The notes under the pieces: generated by a model
What the model saw: the letters and a program-made list of their open reading frames with translations, nothing else
Database searches by the model: none
Told to the model about the DNA's origin: nothing
Made by a program: the position numbers and the translations under genes
In this document: piece after piece, positions 24,629 through 36,658 of the stretch
How the letters are laid out: the number at the start of each line of letters is the position of its first letter
Position numbering within the stretch: the first letter of the stretch is position 1
From: Ignavibacteriota bacterium
Lineage (GTDB): Bacteria; Bacteroidota; Ignavibacteria; Tepidaquicellales; Tepidaquicellaceae
Direction of reading: 5' to 3'
Length of the DNA stretch: 64,000 nt
Assembly: GCA_026390735.1 (NCBI GenBank)
Contig: JAPLFJ010000011.1
Location: 1-64,000, forward strand

Positions 24629-24829
24629 TCAAACATCTAAAAACCATCCCTGATTGAGAACCCTATCAAACTCTTTCCTTGAAAATGGAATGTTATTGTG
24701 TTTCTAAATCTGTGCTTTCAGTTTAGCAAGTGAATCCTTCTCGTTTGTTATTGTCACATACTCATAACCCGGCTTCGTCAGCAGCTTTACAAGTTCATCC
24801 TCAAATATTTGTTCAGGTTGTTTAGTCAT
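24629..24829 (-). pseudogene. hsdR: Remnant of type I restriction endonuclease subunit R
   Basis: Reading from ATG at 24829: MTKQPEQIFEDELVKLL, then GYEYVTITNEKDSLAKLKAQ, then a TAG at 24706-24704, then in the same frame KHNNIPFSRKEFDRVLN before sequence diverges and stops at 24629. This is the N-terminus of HsdR proteins (compare the usual LKAQLEKHN...FSDKEFERVLN); the TAG stands where Glu (GAG) is expected. About 66 codons remain of roughly 1000. The ATG overlaps the Fic stop codon (shared ATGACTAA), the usual coupling seen when a Fic gene precedes hsdR in type I restriction loci. hsdM and hsdS are absent. Confidence 0.88.
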
Positions 24830-26360
24830 TTATCACAAATATTTCTTTGTATATATCTTCAATTTCTCTAACTTCTTTTTCTGTTAATATTTCAAACTCT
24901 TTTTCTTTAGCTCTGTTAGATAGTGTACCTTTGTTCTGTTCTAAAAATCTTATCAGCAGCGCAATCAGTTTATCAGGCATTTGATATTTTTCGTTCAATC
25001 GGTTTTTCATCTTGTCAAAGTTCTGCAAATATTCCACTTCCTCCGGTATAACCTTTTCTACTGTGTATTTCACGCACTCATACAAAAATTCCGCCTGTGT
25101 TGTTGCATCAAAATACCTGTAAAAATCTATTATATCATTTGCTACTTCTACATTGTTCTTGTCTGTTTTCTTCCATTCTATAAAATTAAGCAGGGGATGT
25201 GAATAACTTTCCAGCACTTTTCTGTAATCATCTATTCTCTCTAATATCGCTGCCGAAACAGGAAAAATAATTCCCTGTTGTGTTAATTTCATCACAGACA
25301 ACAAATGATGAATTAAATATCGGTGCAGCCTTCCGTTACCGTCAACAAATGGATGAATAAACACAAACCCAAATGCTATTTTAGCAGCCGTTAGCACCGG
25401 ATAAAATTCGTCCTTCTCCATTTTGTTTGCCGCACCCATTAGTCCTGCCATCAGTTTTTCTACATCCTGCCAGCGTGCTGATATGTGCTCTGGAATAGGT
25501 TCTCCTGAAACTCTGTCGTGCTCACCAACAAACCCTCCTTCAGTTCTGTATCCCATCTTTACAAACCTGCTGTTTTCTATTACTATTTGTTGAAGTCTAA
25601 GTAACTCATCTTTGCTCAACGGTTTACTACCCGCTTGACCGATTGCTTTTCCCCAACGAACTGCCCTATTATGAACTGGTGTTTCTCCTTCAATGGTAAA
25701 TGATGCCTTAGAATCCTTAAGCAGTAAAAATGCAGAAGTTCTTAATAGTATGTCTTTATGCACCCCGCTTATTAAATCGGAAGTCTTCTTTGAAAGATTT
25801 TCTTCTATGTATTCTTCCAGTTTTGGTGTCTTGTGTATAAGCGGACAAAAGTCAACCGTTCCCGGCAGGTTATTCTTTATTCCATGCCTGCTCGAGTTTA
25901 TCACTTTCGATGATGCGTATTGAAGTTTTCCATCTACTAATGGAAAATATTTCGCTCCTTTTACATCTGGAATGTTCAATTGCTTTTGCATAAGCCATTC
26001 ATAAAGAAACCATATCCTGCGGCTATATTGACTGTATGGCTCTGCTTTTATAAAATCTTCTATTGTTTCTACTTTTATCTTTTCAAACAGTTTCTTGAAA
26101 AATAATAAATTAATACCTTCATACTTCAATGCAAAAACTAAATTACCGTACAGTGTATCTTCGGGTTTATAACTTATTGTAAACACCTTCCATTCTGATG
26201 TTGTATAGTTTCTGCTTTTTGAACCGATAATTGCCAAAGCAATTGGCAGAGGCATCTGCAATTTATAAAATTCTATCAAGGCTCCATACCCAACTAAAAT
26301 AGACTCTTCGGGTGCCATTCGTCCTTGGTATGCTAATATTTTAGGTGATATAATTTCCAT
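24822..26360 (-). CDS. Fic family protein (class II, inhibitory helix at N-terminal side)
   Basis: 512 residues. The Fic motif HPFVDGNGRLHR starts at His336; it is the AMPylation/nucleotide-transfer loop. The auto-inhibitory motif [ST]xxxE[GN] is present as SFTIEG (Ser220-Glu224-Gly225), placing it in class II. The N-terminal 180 residues are a separate, unassigned domain; the C-terminus is helical. Fic enzymes transfer AMP or related groups to Ser/Thr/Tyr of target proteins. Its stop overlaps the start of the hsdR remnant, so it originally belonged to a type I restriction operon. Six AAAA(T/A)NCACAT-like repeats precede the gene. Confidence 0.88.
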   Translation of the reverse strand: MEIISPKILAYQGRMAPEESILVGYGALIEFYKLQMPLPIALAIIGSKSRNYTTSEWKVFTISYKPEDTLYGNLVFALKYEGINLLFFKKLFEKIKVETIEDFIKAEPYSQYSRRIWFLYEWLMQKQLNIPDVKGAKYFPLVDGKLQYASSKVINSSRHGIKNNLPGTVDFCPLIHKTPKLEEYIEENLSKKTSDLISGVHKDILLRTSAFLLLKDSKASFTIEGETPVHNRAVRWGKAIGQAGSKPLSKDELLRLQQIVIENSRFVKMGYRTEGGFVGEHDRVSGEPIPEHISARWQDVEKLMAGLMGAANKMEKDEFYPVLTAAKIAFGFVFIHPFVDGNGRLHRYLIHHLLSVMKLTQQGIIFPVSAAILERIDDYRKVLESYSHPLLNFIEWKKTDKNNVEVANDIIDFYRYFDATTQAEFLYECVKYTVEKVIPEEVEYLQNFDKMKNRLNEKYQMPDKLIALLIRFLEQNKGTLSNRAKEKEFEILTEKEVREIEDIYKEIFVIND

Positions 26361-27422: not shown

Positions 27423-27914
27423 TTATCTTATCTCTTCCCCTAAATAATCATTCAAATTAATACTCCCCAAATCTATCTTCTTTGATTCAAATGGGGCAAT
27501 ATTGTTTTCTATAACAAATAAATCATTACTCCCGAATCTTGCAAGAAATATATCATTTGGTACATAGCTGAATTTTCTTCTCAAAAACTTAACAAAATTC
27601 TTTTCTTCTTCTGTAATTTGAAGATCTGCATTCACAATCTTAAGCAGGATTTCAAAAATCAATAAGATTTCAACAATTGACAGATAATTATTCTCAAATA
27701 TCTCAAAATACTCTTTATATACTATTCGAAAGTCAGAGTTCGCTTTTTCAATTAATTCCTTTACCTCTTGTTTATAGTTAATATCTGTAAAATAGTTTTG
27801 AGATTCCGCAATTTTGTTAATTTCTTTTAATTCATCTTCATGTATTATTCCATCTGCTGTCATTGCTAAAACAGCTGTTTTAAGAAGTATTCTTTGTAAT
27901 TCTATTTTTTCCAT
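27423..27914 (-). CDS. TerB-like protein, last gene of the chaperone-kinase operon
   Basis: 163 residues, all-helical, soluble. The signature AMTADGIIHEDELKEI (about 17-32) and the second half VNADLQITEEEKNFVKFL (about 113-130) match the paired acidic loops of the TerB/TerB-like fold. TerB domains bind metal and occur in tellurite-resistance and phage-defence related multi-protein systems, often with membrane and signalling partners. The ATG overlaps the stop of the upstream kinase-AAA gene (TAATG at 27916-27912), so translation is coupled. The C-terminal 40 residues (NDIFLARFGSNDLFVIENNI onward) are not part of the fold. Confidence 0.7.
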   Translation of the reverse strand: MEKIELQRILLKTAVLAMTADGIIHEDELKEINKIAESQNYFTDINYKQEVKELIEKANSDFRIVYKEYFEIFENNYLSIVEILLIFEILLKIVNADLQITEEEKNFVKFLRRKFSYVPNDIFLARFGSNDLFVIENNIAPFESKKIDLGSINLNDYLGEEIR

Positions 27915-29641
27915 TAGTCGAATTCCCTCTTATCTTTAAATTTATTATATATTTCTAATGAAGCCATTGATATTGAAGGCTTTGTATTATTTAATATATC
28001 AATCATTATTTGATTTGTAATTAAGGAATTGCTTAGTAAAGCTTTTCGAGATGCTTCATTAACTACAAAGTCTATATCTGATGCAACATATCCTGTAGTA
28101 AGCTTAGCAAAATCCTCATAAGAAAGATTTTTGTCTAAAGGTCTACACTTGAGCAAAAGTTGAAAAAGCTTAACCCTCGCTATGTTATCTGGTGGTCCTA
28201 CAAAAAATAATTTGTCAATTCTTCCTGTTCTTAATATTGCAGAATCTATTTTATCAGGCCTGTTCGATGTACCAATCATTAGAATACCAAAATTACTGCA
28301 ATTACTTAGCTGAGTTAAAAATTCGTTCACTTCTTGGGAATAAGAGTGTCCTAAATTGTCATCTCTTCTCGGCATTACCGCATCTAATTCGTCTATGAAT
28401 AAAATTGTAGGAGCATTCTTTTTTGCATCTTCAAATAGTTTGCCAATTTTTTCTTGAGTACCATGAACATATACACTTGCTAAATCTGATGGTTTTACAG
28501 AAACAAAATTGTAATTTACTTCCTGTGCAAGTTTTTGACATATAAATGTTTTTCCACAACCTGGAGGTCCATAAAGCAATATTCCATTTGGAACTGTTAT
28601 TTTGTACTTCTCGTACAATTCTTTTTGCTCAAGAGGTAGAATTATATCCTGATACAACGTTTTCTTTAAATCATCCATACCCGCTATTTCATCAAAACCT
28701 TTACCATGTTCCTTGACGGTTATACTCTCATTTGAATTTAAAACAACTGTAATTTTGTTATTCTCTTCCTTCTCGGCTTCGTACTCAAGCAAAGCATTTA
28801 AAAAATCACTACCATTTTTAAACCTGCTATCCATTTTGGGATCTATTGCCTTAAGGATTATAGATTGGAGCTTCTCATCACATAAGCCGTTTATATCTCG
28901 TGGTAAAACGGGTTTATTCTTTCGCGTTTTTAGTATCATCGTTTCTACAGCTTCTTTGTCGTTGTTATCAATTAAATCAAAATCATAATACCATGCTTGT
29001 CTACCGGTTATCATCTGATAAAAAATTATTCCAGCAGAAAATACATCACTTGAAGGTGTTTGAAATCCCCAAAAACCCTCATTTGCAAGATAAGTCATTG
29101 TTCCTGCTACTGATGAGGTTATATACTCATCTTCTATCTTAATGGCTAACCCAAAATCACCAAGTTTGGCTAAAGGTACTTTATTTTGATAGGAAACCAA
29201 CACATTCTGTGGTTTAACATCTCTATGAAGAATAATTGGAGAATTTTCATGTACAAATTTAAGCGCAGAGCAAATATCTTTTTGAAATGACAATGCTACG
29301 TCTATATCCAAAGTAAATTTTCGTTTAAACAAATCCATCAACGATTCACCTGCTACAAATTCCGAACTTATATAAAACAGAATTTGCCCGTTTTTAACAA
29401 AAGTATTTGCATCGAAAACCCTAATAATATTCTGATGAGTTATTTTTGATAATATTCTTGCTTCATTCATCATTTTATCATAATCATACAAAACCTCATT
29501 TCCGGGCTTTAAAACCTTAAGTGCCAATTTTCCTAAATATTTATGGTCTACATAATACACCTCGGAAAAATTTCCTTCTCCAAGAAAATTAATAACTGTA
29601 ATTACATTTGACACTATTTCATCTTTTTCTAATATTCTCAT
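27914..29641 (-). CDS. Fused Ser/Thr protein kinase - AAA+ ATPase
   Basis: 575 residues. The kinase domain (about 10-290) has glycine loop GEGNFSEVY (21-29), Lys42, catalytic HRDVKPQN (139-146), DFG (162-164) and the region MTYLANEGFWG in place of the canonical APE, all consistent with an active Hanks-type kinase. The AAA+ domain (about 315-560) has Walker A GPPGCGKT (358-365), Walker B ILFIDE (413-418), sensor 1 TSN (458-460) and arginine fingers in RTGRIDK (471-477), of the Cdc48/FtsH classic type. No membrane segment. The start follows the Hsp70 stop by 7 bp. The AAA ring may remodel targets chosen or gated by phosphorylation. A kinase and a AAA unfoldase in one chain is unusual. Confidence 0.9.
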   Translation of the reverse strand: MRILEKDEIVSNVITVINFLGEGNFSEVYYVDHKYLGKLALKVLKPGNEVLYDYDKMMNEARILSKITHQNIIRVFDANTFVKNGQILFYISSEFVAGESLMDLFKRKFTLDIDVALSFQKDICSALKFVHENSPIILHRDVKPQNVLVSYQNKVPLAKLGDFGLAIKIEDEYITSSVAGTMTYLANEGFWGFQTPSSDVFSAGIIFYQMITGRQAWYYDFDLIDNNDKEAVETMILKTRKNKPVLPRDINGLCDEKLQSIILKAIDPKMDSRFKNGSDFLNALLEYEAEKEENNKITVVLNSNESITVKEHGKGFDEIAGMDDLKKTLYQDIILPLEQKELYEKYKITVPNGILLYGPPGCGKTFICQKLAQEVNYNFVSVKPSDLASVYVHGTQEKIGKLFEDAKKNAPTILFIDELDAVMPRRDDNLGHSYSQEVNEFLTQLSNCSNFGILMIGTSNRPDKIDSAILRTGRIDKLFFVGPPDNIARVKLFQLLLKCRPLDKNLSYEDFAKLTTGYVASDIDFVVNEASRKALLSNSLITNQIMIDILNNTKPSISMASLEIYNKFKDKREFD

Positions 29642-29648
29642 ATTGTAC

Positions 29649-32213
29649 TTATTTTGTTAAAGCTCCTGTATCTATAGGTCCATTTGGAACACCATCCTCC
29701 ATCAAATCCCATAGTTTAAACATAATGCTTCTCAATGATTCGGTTGTTGGTCCGGAAGCAATAATTGATTTAGCATTAGCTAAAACTTGCTTTGCCTGGC
29801 TTTGTGTACCTGGTTTCCACGATATAGTATTAAAATACTTGTCAACATCAAGTACTTCATTTACCCAATATTCAATCCTTTCATTCAGAATTTTAAAGTT
29901 GAAACTATAAATATTTGTTAGAACTTGTTTTCCAAACTTGGTATCTTTATTGTTTATAAATTCCTCGTATTGTTTATTCAATGTACCAAGTTCTTTTTGA
30001 GTATCGTTATCTCCGTATCTATCTTGTAACTGTTTTGCATTATTTAATGCCTGAGTAATATTATCACCTACTATAAGATGCCTGATTCTGTTATCTATTT
30101 CATCTAATTCTTTTTGTAATTCGTTCACCCTGTCTTTTATTTGTTTCTTTTTATCATCATCTGTCCTGTGTGAGTTTGTAAGTTCATTTATTTCTTCTGC
30201 TTCCTTTTTTAGCTTCTCAATATGACTATTATCAATTTTATAATTACTAAAGTTATGACCAAGTATAACTTCAAGACGTTCATTAGCTTCACCCAGTTCA
30301 CCAACAATGATATCTTCTATATTGACCCCTACCAATTTTTCTCTTATATCTGGAACTTCATCAGTTCCCTCCTTAAAATCAAATGACTCATCTAATAAAG
30401 GAATATACATAGTAACATCAACTTTCAGAGATGAATCTATCTTCATTTCAACTTCAACTTCAGTCCCCGACGGAATTAGTCTTGAAATTTTTTCATTATT
30501 CCCATATTTATAAAGCCATTTTGCAGTGTTATTCCTAATTAATTTTGTACCATGAACCCCTTCAAGAATCGGGATCCATATATAATCTTCAATTTTTCCC
30601 GGACGCACTTCCTTCTTTGTTTTGAATTTTGCCTTTCCAACAGTTGGAAGATTTGTATTCTCTTTAATAATTCTTTCAAACATTAATACTGTTTTACCCT
30701 CATCGTCTGTTGTTTCTATACCTATACCGTAATCGTAAGCTGTAACTTGCGGTGCGATTGTTGTTCCCTGATAAATAGATATCCTGTTAGGTTCACAATC
30801 TAACTTATTCGCAAATTCGTCATAAATAACAATGTCAAATAAATTAGATTTGTTATCTGCAATCTCTAACTCTATCACTCCTTTATTCTGACTTATCGAA
30901 TATTTACCACTATCAAAACCTTCATCTCTTCTTATAATTTGAATATTGAATTTTTTGAAATTATCCTCGTAATTTAGTATTTCATAAGATAATAAAACTT
31001 CATTATCAACAGAATTCGAAGGATATGTAAGTTTCAATTGTATTTTTGTAAGGTCTCTTACCTGATTTATAGTAGGGATATCTCTCGTTGATGCATAAAT
31101 TGCGGCACCTTTTGCTACTACCGTCATAGGGTCAACACTAACATTAATATTCTGAGAAATTTGTTCTTTTACCATTTGTCTTAAAAGTGGTGTATAAGTT
31201 GGTCCGCCAACCATAAGAACCGTCTTTAACTCTTCTTTCGAAATATTATGCTTTTTTAAAAGATTTATAGAAAGGTTTATTGATCTTTGTACAATTGGTT
31301 TTATTAAGTCCTCATACTCTTTTCTTGATATTTCATAGTCAAGATGAATCTCCTTACCATTATCATCTTCATATTCAAGCGGAAATAGTTCATCTACCAA
31401 TTCTGTGGAATTAACTGAAGATGTTGACAAGTTAATTTTGGCGTTTTCAGAATAACTCTTCAAAGGTGTTAAAAATGGGATTCTCAATTTGGTTTCGAGC
31501 AAATCTGAAATCTCGTAGTCATTCATAATTCTTTTTAGGATTATATCTTCGAGTAGAATGTTATCAAAGTCTTTTCCTCCAAGATGTGTGTCGCCTGCTG
31601 TCCCAACTACATTCATAATACCATCCATTGAACACATTAATGCAACATCGAATGTACCACCTCCAAAATCATAAACAAGCCAGTATCCTTCTGTAAATTT
31701 TGATTCTATCGCAAAAGCAGTTGAGGCAGCTATCGGTTCAAGAAGTAATTCAACGTAATCAAATCCTGCAAGTTTAGCGGCTCTTAAAGTAGCATCACAC
31801 TGTACCCTTTCAAACCTTGCAGGTATCGTAATAACTACAGTCTTAACCGTATCATCCGTTACATAATTTTTCAAAGTTTTTAGGACTTCAGCAGATAACT
31901 CTTCAGAATTTAATCGTTTTTCAATGTCTGAATTATATTCATTTGGATAATCAATTGGATACAAAGTGTCCAATCCCATTGTCCTCTTGAATTCAACTGA
32001 TGTCCTGTTGATGTCCTGAATTCTGTATAACTTTGTGTAAGCCAAATCACCAGAGACAATTTGATACTTCTTGTTAATATGTACGCAAGATGGTGTAGTA
32101 TCTTTCTGAGACCGGCTGCTTTTTATTATTCTGACAACTCCATCATCACATCTTGCAATAGCAGAATTTGTGGTTCCTAAATCAATTCCATAATCTATTT
32201 TATGTCTTGCCAT
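29649..32213 (-). CDS. Divergent Hsp70 (DnaK-like) chaperone with long C-terminal extension
   Basis: 854 residues against about 640 for DnaK. The ATPase domain (1-380) is intact: phosphate-1 loop GIDLGTTNSAIA (9-20), LEPIAASTAFA (158-168), phosphate-2 loop YDFGGGTFDVA (181-191), GGKDFDN, and adenosine loop VLMVGGPTYTPLL (332-344). The substrate-binding part is divergent, with a beta-rich region about 400-640, then a charged coiled-coil (about 660-740, EEINELTNSHRTDDDKKKQ) and an unassigned helical end. No C-terminal EEVD-type tail. It is the housekeeping-unlike Hsp70 of an operon that also encodes GrpE-like and J-like membrane proteins, so it probably acts at the inner membrane surface. Confidence 0.9.
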   Translation of the reverse strand: MARHKIDYGIDLGTTNSAIARCDDGVVRIIKSSRSQKDTTPSCVHINKKYQIVSGDLAYTKLYRIQDINRTSVEFKRTMGLDTLYPIDYPNEYNSDIEKRLNSEELSAEVLKTLKNYVTDDTVKTVVITIPARFERVQCDATLRAAKLAGFDYVELLLEPIAASTAFAIESKFTEGYWLVYDFGGGTFDVALMCSMDGIMNVVGTAGDTHLGGKDFDNILLEDIILKRIMNDYEISDLLETKLRIPFLTPLKSYSENAKINLSTSSVNSTELVDELFPLEYEDDNGKEIHLDYEISRKEYEDLIKPIVQRSINLSINLLKKHNISKEELKTVLMVGGPTYTPLLRQMVKEQISQNINVSVDPMTVVAKGAAIYASTRDIPTINQVRDLTKIQLKLTYPSNSVDNEVLLSYEILNYEDNFKKFNIQIIRRDEGFDSGKYSISQNKGVIELEIADNKSNLFDIVIYDEFANKLDCEPNRISIYQGTTIAPQVTAYDYGIGIETTDDEGKTVLMFERIIKENTNLPTVGKAKFKTKKEVRPGKIEDYIWIPILEGVHGTKLIRNNTAKWLYKYGNNEKISRLIPSGTEVEVEMKIDSSLKVDVTMYIPLLDESFDFKEGTDEVPDIREKLVGVNIEDIIVGELGEANERLEVILGHNFSNYKIDNSHIEKLKKEAEEINELTNSHRTDDDKKKQIKDRVNELQKELDEIDNRIRHLIVGDNITQALNNAKQLQDRYGDNDTQKELGTLNKQYEEFINNKDTKFGKQVLTNIYSFNFKILNERIEYWVNEVLDVDKYFNTISWKPGTQSQAKQVLANAKSIIASGPTTESLRSIMFKLWDLMEDGVPNGPIDTGALTK

Positions 32214-32240: not shown

Positions 32241-33122
32241 TTATACTAAATCGCTTTCATTTACTCCAACTTCTATTTCTCCCTGTTGTATTGATTGAGA
32301 ATTATATAGTATTTGAGGTTTAATTGTTCTGAAGATTATTTGCTCACCAGGTTTAAGCCCTTCCACAGCAATAAAGTTTATAGGGATAAATGTGCTTGTA
32401 TCTGTAAATGGCAAACCATTTCTTATTATAATTTCATACCCCTGTTGATTCAGCTCGCTTTCCATCCTTTTTAATGCATTTCTGACTGCTTGAACATCAC
32501 GGGAACTGTCGTCCATTTTAGTCAATCTCATACTTATTCTGTTTATTTCATCAGCTACTCTCATAGCAAAAGAATGGTCTGATTCATTTGTGGATTTACC
32601 TTCAGAAGAACTCTTTTCCGATTCCTTTATTATATTCATTTGCTTCGACATCAGCTCTAATAATTCTTTGTCTATTTTAAGCGCCTTTTCTTCTACTGTC
32701 TTATTTGATTCTTTAAATTTTCTAATTATTATTAAAACCAAGAATACTATAACTCCTATAATTATAGCCGCTATAACTATCCCGATGATATTAGATTTGT
32801 TAAATTTTGAAGAAATATTCTCTAAATCCCTGTCCTTGAATTTCTTTTCGTTTTCAAAGTCTTTCTTTAAATTATTGTTTTCTTCTGTAATCTTTTTATT
32901 GGCATTTTCAATAGTGCTAATCTTGTTCTTTAATGAATCAATTGTTTTTTTCTCTGTATCATTTTGCAAATCAGTACTTTTTATAAGGTCATCAATTCTT
33001 TGATTCAACTTTTTATTGTCATTTTCAATTTTGTTGATACTGTTTCTTATCAATAAAGTATCAACCTGCGAGTAACAAATACTCTGAATGGCTATAAAGA
33101 TAATTAATAATGTTAGTCTCAT
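32241..33122 (-). CDS. Membrane-anchored coiled-coil protein with GrpE-like cytosolic domain
   Basis: 293 residues: signal peptide (1-19, CYSQ cleavage region), periplasmic coiled coil (about 25-108, heptads with KNKISTIENANKK), one transmembrane helix (about 112-133) and a cytosolic part. Residues 185-290 read as a helix pair plus small beta domain resembling the nucleotide exchange factor GrpE: LKRMESELNQQGYEII, NGLPF, and KPGEQIIFRTIKPQILYN, comparable to the GrpE head where GY and R-x-x-RPA precede a beta strand. If correct it would tether nucleotide exchange for the adjacent Hsp70 to the membrane. The assignment is by pattern and context, not by strong identity. Confidence 0.6.
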   Translation of the reverse strand: MRLTLLIIFIAIQSICYSQVDTLLIRNSINKIENDNKKLNQRIDDLIKSTDLQNDTEKKTIDSLKNKISTIENANKKITEENNNLKKDFENEKKFKDRDLENISSKFNKSNIIGIVIAAIIIGVIVFLVLIIIRKFKESNKTVEEKALKIDKELLELMSKQMNIIKESEKSSSEGKSTNESDHSFAMRVADEINRISMRLTKMDDSSRDVQAVRNALKRMESELNQQGYEIIIRNGLPFTDTSTFIPINFIAVEGLKPGEQIIFRTIKPQILYNSQSIQQGEIEVGVNESDLV

Positions 33123-33128
33123 AATTAT

Positions 33129-35294
33129 TTAATCATTAAAAAAATCACTGGAGGTTGATGAATTAAAACCATATGAAGAGGTAGTAGTTATCGTATACAA
33201 CGTCCAGTCTCCACTTGAATACGATAATCCCTTTGAAGTTTTATATTGCTCTATGTCAACTGCTGTATTGAATTTTGCAAAATCTTCGTGGAATTTGAAA
33301 CCGCCCTTTATTTGATTGCTTTTAAATGTTTTTTCGTTGCTCCATGCAGTTCCTTTATAAACTTTCATATAGTATTTTCCGGTTGGCACATTTTTTAATG
33401 TGTATTTATCATTTGATCTGACATAGACACATCTTATAACTTTATCGGTTGTATTTCTAACTAAACTTATCAGTGCGTCTTCTTCTGTTTCATTTATAAG
33501 AGTAAGACGGCAATAAGACCCTTTGTCTGAACGAATACTTGAAAAATATGAGTTGTAAGGTGTAGCACCTGTTTTAAGACGAGTTACTTTAAGATCAGGG
33601 GGTGTATCATTCTTAACTTCTTCTTTTGTCGAATTACTTTGTGTTGTATTTGTTGTTTTATTAGAGCTTGTAGTAGATGTATTATTTTGAGAATTGTTTG
33701 ATGAATTACTATTTGAGCTTGAATTCTTATATTTATCAATCTTATTTTCAGATTTGCATGACTTTGAATTTGCACTAATTATACCTACAAGCAAAATGAT
33801 ACCAAAAATAATTCCCCAAATCCAATTTGATTTACTATCAGAACTTGTTGAATCAGTACTTGAATTATTAGTTGATTTGTATGGGTATCCTGTTAGACTA
33901 ATTTTAATATTATTATTAATAATTTCTAAATCATCCAAAATCTTCATTTTTATACTTGAGTCTTTAACATATTCCAAACTCTTTTCAAGTATTTCCTTTG
34001 CTCTAATATAATCTTTCAGATTATTTGATAAATTTACTGCACAATTCCTGAATAAAGAAGCTGACAGATTTAATATCATACTTCTGTATTCATCTTTAAT
34101 ATTTATATCTACCTTCGACAAAGTATACTTTAAAACCACTAAAAAATCGAAATAAACAGTATATGGATTTATAAGATTATCTAATTTTCTATTACTTTCT
34201 TCTAATTTTTCAAAAAACTCTGAAATAATACTATCATTAGAAGATAAATTAACGGCTTCATTGAAAGCCGTTTCATTTTCTCTTACTCTTCTCTTCGTAA
34301 TATCCCCTATTGCATATTCACCTGCATAATTGAATAAAGTTTCAACTTTGGTATTAGTGTATCTCTCGTCAAAATTATTTTTGAAAGTTGTAATAGCGCA
34401 ATTAAGAAATTCATCAGCTATTTTATCAGATAACATTTGAAAACGATAATCATTTTCCCCTAATATATTCTTTATAAAGAAAATGCTATCTTTAATATTA
34501 TTGTATAAATTATTCCCAAAATCGTAAGATTGAGATTTGTTTGAATTACATAAGGTGTTACATTCCTCAACATTAAATTCTATACTTTTAATTTTATCGT
34601 AAACTAAACTCGAAACTATCTCTTCTCTGAATTCATCCGGTATTTGCTTGTGATTTATAAGTGTTTTTACAAATTCAACATCTTCTTCAATATTGTACTT
34701 TTCCTGTATTTCGTTGAATATTGTTCTGAACAAATAACTTAAAGTATCATTTCGATTTCCGGCATTTAATAATATTGAGTTGTTAAAATGTGAAATATAT
34801 AATTCCCAGAATTCTTCCGAATTAAACGACTTACCGTAAAGCGTAATCGATTTTCTCAAACTCTTTAAATCAACTACCCCGTTTTGAAAAGATTTATAGT
34901 AATAAAGAAGCCCTAAGTTTTTGTATGAAGTAAAATTGTTTTCATTTATCTGATTATTAGATATTGTGCTTTCCCATTTCTCTATTGCCTCATCTACTTC
35001 ATTAGCTTTCAGGTCTGAAAATGCTTCGTTGTCTGCCTCGGTTACTTTGGAAAACCAGAATAATGAATAATTTATTCTATCTTTTGGTGCTTCAATTTTT
35101 CTAATAGTTTCGCTTAGGGTTGAACTATCCCTGTTCAAAACTCCGAGAAATTCAAAATCTGTCTCCTGGGGTTTTGGCTGTTGCCCAATAGATAAGAAAA
35201 CCTCAAAATTTTGAATATTCTTTTTGATTGTCCTTTCAGCAGCATTTACAGGTAATCCCAATATCCTAAAAGGATTATTAACTATTGTATACAA
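33129..35294 (-). CDS. Single-pass membrane protein with degenerate J-like N-terminus and helical repeats
   Basis: 721 residues. The start YTIVNNPFRILGLPVNAAERTIKK resembles helix I/II of J domains (NPYEILGV...A...IK) but has no HPD. Residues 100-480 are helical (TPR-like); a transmembrane helix lies near 490-510 (WIWGIIFGIILLVGII); a Ser/Asn/Thr-rich linker (about 515-560) and a beta-rich external domain of about 150 residues (near YNSYFSSIRS to SSDFFND) follow. The start codon is TTG at 35294, immediately after the TAA of the preceding gene in the same frame; no ATG lies near. It may be the co-chaperone and sensor of the system, binding something outside the membrane. Confidence 0.65.
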   Translation of the reverse strand: MYTIVNNPFRILGLPVNAAERTIKKNIQNFEVFLSIGQQPKPQETDFEFLGVLNRDSSTLSETIRKIEAPKDRINYSLFWFSKVTEADNEAFSDLKANEVDEAIEKWESTISNNQINENNFTSYKNLGLLYYYKSFQNGVVDLKSLRKSITLYGKSFNSEEFWELYISHFNNSILLNAGNRNDTLSYLFRTIFNEIQEKYNIEEDVEFVKTLINHKQIPDEFREEIVSSLVYDKIKSIEFNVEECNTLCNSNKSQSYDFGNNLYNNIKDSIFFIKNILGENDYRFQMLSDKIADEFLNCAITTFKNNFDERYTNTKVETLFNYAGEYAIGDITKRRVRENETAFNEAVNLSSNDSIISEFFEKLEESNRKLDNLINPYTVYFDFLVVLKYTLSKVDINIKDEYRSMILNLSASLFRNCAVNLSNNLKDYIRAKEILEKSLEYVKDSSIKMKILDDLEIINNNIKISLTGYPYKSTNNSSTDSTSSDSKSNWIWGIIFGIILLVGIISANSKSCKSENKIDKYKNSSSNSNSSNNSQNNTSTTSSNKTTNTTQSNSTKEEVKNDTPPDLKVTRLKTGATPYNSYFSSIRSDKGSYCRLTLINETEEDALISLVRNTTDKVIRCVYVRSNDKYTLKNVPTGKYYMKVYKGTAWSNEKTFKSNQIKGGFKFHEDFAKFNTAVDIEQYKTSKGLSYSSGDWTLYTITTTSSYGFNSSTSSDFFND

Positions 35295-36065
35295 TTAGTT
35301 CTTCATAAAAATTTTAAAAAAGGATTTTAATTTATTTGGCTTTGTCGATTCGACATCCTTGTTTAAATCATTAATTTCTTTAAACGAAGGTCCTCCGCTC
35401 AAATTTGTTGTTATAGGTACTTTAAGTCCTTTCTTTGACATCTTAATATATAACAATTCATTCATTGCTGTTCCATTTTGTTCATATTCCAAAGATTCAT
35501 TAAAATATATTTCTGCATTATCATAATTCTGTAATTCAATTTCGCAAAAGCCGATTCCTCTTAATGCTCTTGCTTTAAGATATTTTGTAATATAAGGACG
35601 AGAATCGAACGCTTTCCTGAAATATTTAATACCTTCTTTGTAATAATTAAGGTCGTTATACGCCTTCGCTTTATAAGTACTGAGCATTCCCATTTCATTC
35701 AATAAAAGAGGATTATCCATTTCTAAAGATAATCCTGTTTGAAGATATTTTTCGGCGGATAATATGTCATTTGTTTCTAATAAAGCCACTGTTATGAAAT
35801 AACAGGCTTTTGGGTATATATTGCCAATCCACTTAACATTTAACTGACTTCCTGTTTTCTTTACAAATTCTACATATTCGAGAAATTCTTCTTTATCCCA
35901 GAATTCAATATATTCAGTATCACCTTCAATTGTACGATATTGATAATCTGAAGGAATATTACTTAATATCTCTTTTAGAATTATTATCCCTTCGTTAAAC
36001 CTTTTATCTTCTTGAATCAACTTTTGCGCTATGTTTATCTTTTGAAGTAAAGAATCTCTATTCAT
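35295..36065 (-). CDS. Tetratricopeptide-repeat protein
   Basis: 256 residues, soluble, helical. TPR signatures are visible at about 90-190: TVALLETNDILSAEKYLQTG, LNYYKEGIKYFRKAFDSRP, RALRGIGFCEIELQNYDNAE and IYFNESLEYE. TPR arrays mediate protein contacts and often bind chaperones. It starts 1 bp after the stop of the SH3b gene and ends with a TAA directly followed by the TTG start of the 721-residue protein, so the two are in one frame separated by a single stop codon. Confidence 0.75.
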   Translation of the reverse strand: MNRDSLLQKINIAQKLIQEDKRFNEGIIILKEILSNIPSDYQYRTIEGDTEYIEFWDKEEFLEYVEFVKKTGSQLNVKWIGNIYPKACYFITVALLETNDILSAEKYLQTGLSLEMDNPLLLNEMGMLSTYKAKAYNDLNYYKEGIKYFRKAFDSRPYITKYLKARALRGIGFCEIELQNYDNAEIYFNESLEYEQNGTAMNELLYIKMSKKGLKVPITTNLSGGPSFKEINDLNKDVESTKPNKLKSFFKIFMKN

Positions 36066-36066
36066 C

Positions 36067-36612
36067 TCAATACCTCCTTGTAACTATATAAAACTCCCAA
36101 TTATAGCCCATACCTTTTTCAAAAAATTTACTTCCATAATTAGGTATCACACCTGAGGCTGAGGCAACAAAACTGTATGTCCCCTGTGTCAAGGAAATTG
36201 ATTTTCTTTCTTGAGGAGAAAAGACATAAGCTGAGGAATTTAATTTCAATGTCATAGTTTTTGAAGTATTATTATAAACACTTACTTCAGAATATGACGA
36301 AGTGATCCTTCCTGTTGGGGCAAATACTTTATCAGATGTTTTTTCTAATGCTTCGATTGACTTAACGTAAGATGAAAGAACATATCCCTCGGTATTACTC
36401 TCAATATCTATAATATGATAATATCCGTCTTCTGTATCCATTGAATATAAGAATACGGGAGCGTTTTTTATTAAAGTAGTAATAACCTCGTATTGCTTTC
36501 CTGGTCCATCTCTCATCGATGTTTTTTTTGATATGTATCCAAGATATGACTGAGAAAATGCTTGAAGGGTAAAAAATAACAATAATAAAATGACAAAACT
36601 TATTTTTCTCAT
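36067..36612 (-). CDS. Secreted SH3b-domain protein, first gene of the chaperone-kinase operon
   Basis: Start chosen at ATG 36612, where MRKISFVILLLLFFTLQAFSQ is a clean signal peptide; an upstream in-frame ATG (36648) would add 12 residues before it. Mature protein about 160 residues: a bacterial SH3 domain (about 20-75: KTSMRDGPGKQYEVITTLIK, then GYVLSSYV) and a C-terminal beta domain (VSVYNNTSKTMTLKLNS ... SLTQGTYSFVASASG). Bacterial SH3b domains bind peptidoglycan or peptides in the periplasm. As the first gene with a predicted export signal it may supply the periplasmic side of the membrane system encoded downstream. Confidence 0.75.
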   Translation of the reverse strand: MRKISFVILLLLFFTLQAFSQSYLGYISKKTSMRDGPGKQYEVITTLIKNAPVFLYSMDTEDGYYHIIDIESNTEGYVLSSYVKSIEALEKTSDKVFAPTGRITSSYSEVSVYNNTSKTMTLKLNSSAYVFSPQERKSISLTQGTYSFVASASGVIPNYGSKFFEKGMGYNWEFYIVTRRY

Positions 36613-36658
36613 AAAAAATAAATAATAATTTGTAAAAATTGTTTCCAATAGATAATTG

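What the first reader, a model, noticed from the sequence alone, without database searches (positions are those of the whole stretch)
32241..33122. GrpE-like nucleotide exchange domain tethered to the membrane by a periplasmic coiled coil
Seen: signal peptide, about 85-residue coiled coil, one transmembrane helix and a cytosolic C-terminus with a helix-plus-beta pattern resembling GrpE (NGLPF ... KPGEQIIFRTIKPQILYN). GrpE is normally soluble. Here the coiled coil lies on the opposite side of the membrane from the exchange domain, which could convert an outside signal into Hsp70 nucleotide exchange.
Basis: inference. Interest (0 to 1): 0.6.

Follow-up and report, generated by a model that had tools for sequence, protein, structure and literature searches.

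The report
Membrane-spanning GrpE in a chaperone-kinase operon
This gene encodes a version of GrpE, the protein that resets Hsp70 chaperones, built into the inner membrane with an extra arm outside the cytoplasm; it belongs to a patchily distributed chaperone-plus-kinase gene cluster that probably defends bacteria against phages or other invaders.

Summary
The 293-aa protein has a signal peptide, a periplasmic coiled coil, one TM helix, a cytosolic stalk helix and a C-terminal GrpE head. AlphaFold2 gives pLDDT above 90 for the head. The twelve best Foldseek hits in the PDB are all GrpE or GrpEL1 (best E 2.7e-6); the next unrelated hit is at 0.67. Profile-profile comparison of the C-terminal domain alone with canonical GrpE gives 78-85% probability, against at most 1.8% in shuffled controls.
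Fifty-five homologues keep this architecture. The gene lies directly before a divergent Hsp70 in 52 of 53 testable loci, within a conserved operon: SH3 protein, J-like TPR membrane protein, TM-GrpE, Hsp70, Ser/Thr kinase-AAA+ ATPase, TerB. A normal soluble GrpE lies elsewhere in the genome. The operon is rare and patchy (6 of 395 Bacteroidota genomes) and often neighbours restriction, BREX, RloAB or mobility genes.
Most likely it is a dedicated, membrane-spanning exchange factor for the operon's Hsp70, in a defence-like envelope-linked chaperone/kinase system. Exchange activity, signal sensing and anti-phage function were not tested. New variant of a known kind; no earlier description of a transmembrane GrpE was found.

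The parts
32241..33122 (-). TM-GrpE gene, 293 aa
   Evidence: 55 homologues with the same architecture
33066..33122 (-). signal-peptide-like N-terminus, residues 1-19
   Evidence: hydrophobic N-terminus in 55 of 55 homologues
32793..33059 (-). periplasmic coiled coil, residues 22-110
   Evidence: continuous helix in the AF2 model; heptad-like hydrophobic moment; poorly conserved sequence (mean entropy 2.3 bits)
32724..32780 (-). transmembrane helix, residues 115-133
   Evidence: Kyte-Doolittle mean 3.73; TM in 53 of 55 homologues, C-side K/R bias
32607..32723 (-). cytosolic stalk helix, residues 134-172, equivalent in position to the GrpE stalk
   Evidence: AF2; aligned to the GrpE stalk of 1dkg_A
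32439..32585 (-). GrpE helical-bundle hairpin, residues 180-228, with family-invariant E180, D182, H183
   Evidence: most conserved segment (mean entropy 0.8-1.3 bits)
32253..32438 (-). GrpE beta-wing domain, residues 229-290
   Evidence: AF2 strands; Foldseek hits all GrpE; profile-profile match
29649..32213 (-). partner Hsp70, 854 aa: intact NBD motifs, inserted beta-rich segment of about 90 aa between NBD and SBD, recognisable SBDbeta, helical C-terminus
   Evidence: Pfam HSP70 E 1.1e-68; alignment with the genome's own DnaK
27914..29641 (-). Ser/Thr kinase fused to a classical AAA+ ATPase
   Evidence: Pkinase E 6.8e-41, AAA E 7.4e-36
27423..27914 (-). TerB-like protein
   Evidence: weak Pfam TerB match, E 3.4e-4, below cut-off; homologous gene found in 25 of 55 loci by a single-sequence search; gene at the same operon position on pHALHY02 annotated TerB family
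33129..35294 (-). HPD-less J-like N-terminus, helical repeats, TM, C-terminal beta domain
   Evidence: profile match to J helices I-II, 57-73% probability, no HPD in any of 52; AF2; upstream gene in 50 of 55 loci
35295..36065 (-). TPR protein
   Evidence: Pfam TPR_8 E 3.6e-8
36067..36648 (-). secreted SH3_3 protein, probable first gene of the operon
   Evidence: Pfam SH3_3 E 1.9e-7; homologue present in several loci

Best explanation
The protein is a membrane-spanning GrpE that serves as the dedicated nucleotide-exchange factor of the Hsp70 encoded next to it. Shown by sequence and model: the GrpE head (helical hairpin plus beta wing) sits, by predicted topology, in the cytosol on a stalk helix that continues through one TM helix into a periplasmic coiled coil, and the gene is locked into an operon with Hsp70, an HPD-less J-like membrane protein, a kinase-AAA+ ATPase and TerB. 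Inferred: it dimerises through stalk, TM and coiled coil; the beta wing opens the Hsp70 NBD to release ADP, so client release is confined to the inner face of the inner membrane; and changes in the outer coil or membrane could alter dimer geometry and so gate exchange, as heat does with the stalk of soluble GrpE. Also inferred: the whole cassette is a mobile defence system in which Hsp70 holds or releases a client (possibly the kinase-AAA+ protein or TerB) when the envelope or a phage component is sensed.
For: GrpE fold: AF2 head pLDDT above 90; the top 12 PDB hits are all GrpE/GrpEL1, E 2.7e-6 to 5e-3, then a gap to 0.67; 4ani_A Z 8.6, rmsd 3.3 A over 105 residues; 1dkg_A Z 9.5 over 109-290. 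Homology: hhalign of the coil-free C-terminal domain against canonical GrpE gives 78-85% probability, E 1.9e-5 and 6e-6, against at most 1.8% in 30 column shuffles run in both directions; Pfam GrpE matches 10 of 46 members, best E 7.4e-7. Partner: Hsp70 is the next gene in 52 of 53 loci, median gap 16 bp over all scored loci. Hsp70 NBD motifs intact. Separate housekeeping GrpE and DnaK genes exist. Topology conserved. Defence-like: rare and patchy; beside BREX and other defence-type genes on a plasmid, beside RloAB-like genes, beside ResIII, methylase, McrBC and relaxase genes in flanks, which do not appear among the families listed for control stretches.
Against: The window protein scores below the Pfam GrpE cut-off (16.2 against 25.8 bits), and only about 13% of aligned residues are identical to canonical GrpE. 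Z of 8-10 can occur by chance for helical models (note); the case rests on Foldseek and profiles. No complex with the Hsp70 could be modelled, so docking and exchange are untested. The J-like protein lacks HPD, so the full DnaK-DnaJ-GrpE cycle is not reproduced within the operon. Defence is inferred from neighbours only; around the window copy the only such candidate recognised is a Fic gene.
Confidence: 0.62

Rival explanations
1. Recruiter, not exchange factor: the GrpE head has lost wedge activity and only pins the Hsp70 to the membrane or clusters it, with the housekeeping GrpE (or no factor) doing the exchange.
For: Head sequence is very diverged from canonical GrpE (about 13% identity); the KGY.L segment of canonical GrpE is replaced by a conserved KPQV.Y in the family; a housekeeping GrpE is present in the genome.
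Against: The beta wing, the part that does the exchange in GrpE, is complete in the model and much better conserved than the coil or TM; a mere tether would not need it.
Confidence: 0.2
2. Housekeeping or stress role: the TM-GrpE is a real exchange factor, but the cassette is an envelope protein quality-control chaperone system, not a defence system.
For: Chaperone composition; SH3 and other envelope-associated parts; some copies lie among metabolic genes, including the window copy.
Against: Found in 6 of 395 Bacteroidota genomes and 3 of 29 of its own family (one of the three weak), and in none of four same-genus genomes, which is unlike housekeeping; plasmid copy and defence neighbours.
Confidence: 0.3
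3. Unrelated coiled-coil membrane protein (a 'septum formation initiator', as the plasmid homologue is annotated) whose GrpE resemblance is a coiled-coil artefact.
For: Annotation on pHALHY02; weak DivIC and EssA Pfam matches in 17 of 46 members each.
Against: The GrpE match persists when the coil, TM and stalk are removed, and the fold search finds only GrpE at significant E.
Confidence: 0.03

Closest known systems
GrpE / GrpEL1 (Pfam PF01025; PDB 1DKG, 4ANI, 9BLS)
   Same: stalk helix, helical hairpin that would form the four-helix bundle in a dimer, six-stranded beta wing, coupling to an Hsp70 gene
   Different: signal peptide, periplasmic coiled coil and TM helix added; compact bundle hairpin; invariant E-x-D-H at the bundle start; beta-wing sequence strongly diverged; partner is a divergent Hsp70 paralogue, not DnaK
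GAP1-N2 conflict systems with HSP70 + GrpE + DnaJ-FNIII (eLife 2020, PMC7159879)
   Same: predicted conflict operons pairing a special Hsp70, a GrpE and a J-domain or TPR protein with a beta domain; protein kinases in another theme of the same systems
   Different: those are GTPase-centred, mainly actinobacteria and firmicutes; no transmembrane GrpE is mentioned in the passages read; here a kinase-AAA+ and TerB accompany the chaperones
Snl1, yeast ER-anchored BAG exchange factor (PMC3962485)
   Same: membrane-anchored Hsp70 nucleotide-exchange factor
   Different: BAG fold, unrelated to GrpE; eukaryotic ER; no outer coiled coil known to me (general knowledge)

Membership tests
GrpE | beta-wing domain fold after a helical bundle | tested here: met
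   AF2 plus Foldseek: top 12 hits all GrpE; rmsd 3.3 A over 105 residues to 4ani_A
GrpE | sequence-profile homology | tested here: met
   hhalign 78-85% against at most 1.8% shuffled; 10 of 46 members match Pfam GrpE at E up to 0.1, best 7.4e-7; the window protein itself is below the curated cut-off
GrpE | long helical stalk before the bundle | tested here: met
   helix 111-172 in the model (TM plus cytosolic stalk), aligned to the stalk of 1dkg_A
GrpE | dimer, and beta wing inserted in the Hsp70 NBD cleft | not testable with these tools
   only single-chain prediction was available
GrpE | nucleotide-exchange activity on an Hsp70 | not testable with these tools
   needs biochemistry
GrpE | soluble cytosolic protein (customary, not a structural criterion) | tested here: not met
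   conserved signal-like N-terminus and TM in the family; hence called a membrane variant rather than an ordinary GrpE
J-domain protein (33129-35294 protein) | HPD motif | tested here: not met
   0 of 52 homologues have HPD; only helices I-II match
Hsp70 (29649-32213 protein) | actin-like ATPase with conserved phosphate motifs, plus SBD | tested here: met
   E 1.1e-68; motifs and SBDbeta aligned; unusual insert at the linker
GAP1-N2 Hsp70/GrpE conflict system | GAP1-N2 GTPase genes in the neighbourhood | tested here: inconclusive
   no GTPase recognised among the seven operon genes, but no GAP1-N2 model was searched for by name

The most novel reading that the evidence does not exclude
A bacterial transmembrane GrpE couples an envelope event (periplasmic coiled-coil rearrangement on phage attack or membrane damage) to nucleotide exchange on a dedicated Hsp70, which then releases a kinase-AAA+ effector: an Hsp70 cycle used as a transmembrane signalling switch in anti-phage defence.
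Probability: 0.22. Interest if true: 0.85.

Novelty: new variant of a known kind. Interest (0 to 1): 0.6.

Why it matters
GrpE is described as the only known type of Hsp70 nucleotide-exchange factor in bacteria (PMC4753570). A conserved, membrane-spanning version paired with its own Hsp70 would show that the Hsp70 cycle can be localised to, and perhaps gated from across, the membrane. It would also define a chaperone-kinase cassette, probably for defence, one of whose members is currently annotated 'septum formation initiator'.

Tried and rejected
A coiled-coil artefact was excluded by using only the C-terminal domain and column-shuffled controls. DivIC/septum initiator rejected (weak coil-type matches, absent from the fold search). 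An HMM of canonical GrpE alone does not find the family at E below 0.01, so one-directional sequence search is insufficient. A five-sequence profile against the PDB was not significant (GrpE 4ani E 0.33). PADLOC names no component of the operon beyond generic kinase and AAA matches. No phage record holds the gene at the sensitivity used. The fold search of the J-like protein gave no significant hit, J domains included, and does not exclude one. PADLOC family counts in flanks against controls (130 against 54) are confounded by many models per family and are not used as a statistic. Paper searches for a transmembrane GrpE found none; preprints and most subscription journals were not searchable.

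Full report
Observation. The gene at 32241-33122 (- strand) encodes 293 aa: signal-like N-terminus, long periplasmic helix with heptad-like hydrophobicity, TM helix 115-133, then a cytosolic helix and a mixed helix/strand domain. A profile-guided scan of GTDB contigs found 55 loci, mostly Bacteroidota with a few labelled Proteobacteria. All 55 have a hydrophobic N-terminus; 53 have a TM before the invariant E-x-D-H motif (TM end to motif 48-68 residues); and in 53 the C-terminal side of the TM carries more K/R. L038, one of the two exceptions, is a truncated ORF. Whether or not the signal peptide is cleaved, the head is predicted to be cytosolic (inference).

Is it GrpE? Single-sequence Pfam is only suggestive (GrpE 16.2 bits, cut-off 25.8), but 10 of 46 family members match, best E 7.4e-7. 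With coil, TM and stalk removed, the family profile matches a profile of 33 canonical GrpE proteins at 78-85% probability (E 1.9e-5 and 6e-6, depending on direction), over part of the bundle and the whole beta domain; 30 column shuffles run in both directions gave at most 1.8%. AlphaFold2 with 46 sequences gave mean pLDDT 87, with the head above 90. Foldseek against the PDB returned GrpE or GrpEL1 in ranks 1-12 (E 2.7e-6 to 5e-3) and nothing else below 0.67. VIA-align superposes 105 head residues on 4ani_A at 3.3 A, Z 8.6, and aligns residues 109-290 with nearly all of 1dkg_A, Z 9.5, at a large rmsd (22.8 A) that I read as a different angle between stalk and head. So the TM helix and cytosolic helix take the place of the GrpE stalk, and the periplasmic coiled coil is an extra extension of it.

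Surroundings. The operon reads SH3 protein, TPR protein, J-like/TPR/TM protein, TM-GrpE, Hsp70, kinase-AAA+ ATPase, TerB. Over the 55 loci the J-like protein is upstream in 50, Hsp70 is the next downstream gene in 52 of 53 with room (median gap 16 bp), and the kinase-AAA+ is found in 48. The Hsp70 keeps the ATPase motifs, including GIDLGTTNS and DFGGGTFD, but carries an inserted beta-rich segment of about 90 residues before a recognisable SBDbeta, in place of the usual linker. The J-like N-terminus matches J-domain helices I-II by profile (57-73%, shuffles at most 2.3%), yet none of 52 has HPD. The genome also carries a normal GrpE, a normal DnaK and DnaJ-domain genes.

Distribution and context. 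Profile search found the gene in 6 of 395 Bacteroidota genomes and 3 of 29 genomes of its own family, one of them a weak N-terminal match, and in none of four same-genus genomes. On plasmid pHALHY02 the cassette is next to BREX brxL and pglZ and a 5-methylcytosine restriction component, with a SIR2 gene further upstream; there the TM-GrpE is annotated 'septum formation initiator'. In a same-family genome it is near RloB and an AAA_21 ATPase. Flanking genes of the loci include ResIII (4), relaxase (3), N6 and EcoRI methylases and McrBC; genes from the middle of random stretches of relatives list as metabolic and transport genes. This is suggestive, not a formal enrichment test.

Mechanism. Shown by computation: fold, predicted topology, operon. 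Inferred: homodimer, wedge-type exchange on the neighbouring Hsp70, confinement at the membrane, and possible gating from outside. The stalk of E. coli GrpE unfolds with heat, which limits its action on DnaK (PMC4753570), and stalk and beta wing contact the Hsp70 linker and lid (PMC11685456); extending that stalk through a membrane would be a simple way to pass a signal. The main rivals are a recruiter without exchange activity, and a non-defence envelope chaperone role.

Known parallels. Conflict systems with HSP70, GrpE and DnaJ have been described in GAP1-N2 neighbourhoods (PMC7159879), so a special Hsp70-GrpE pair in predicted conflict operons is not new; I found no description of a transmembrane GrpE or of this gene set. 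Snl1 is a membrane-anchored exchange factor of a different fold (PMC3962485).

Verdict. New variant of a known kind.

Noticed in passing
window 29649-32213: The operon Hsp70 has a conserved beta-rich insert of about 90 aa between NBD and SBD in place of the usual hydrophobic linker; unusual for Hsp70.
   Followed up: partly
window 33129-35294; L010 11201-12904: N-terminal 'NNPYRILGL' domain resembles J helices I-II but never has HPD; the L010 homologue carries a C-terminal 'CYIATMAYG' segment and the pHALHY02 homologue is annotated CFI-box-CTERM.
   Followed up: partly
L038, L042, L051: These loci encode two Hsp70 genes in tandem after TM-GrpE.
   Followed up: no
L093: A second, stand-alone soluble GrpE of about 160 aa in a same-order genome, near a long uncharacterised ORF.
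   Followed up: no
window 24822-26360: Fic-domain protein (Pfam E 5.9e-15) downstream of the operon, followed by SWIM and DUF4143/AAA_14 genes.
   Followed up: partly
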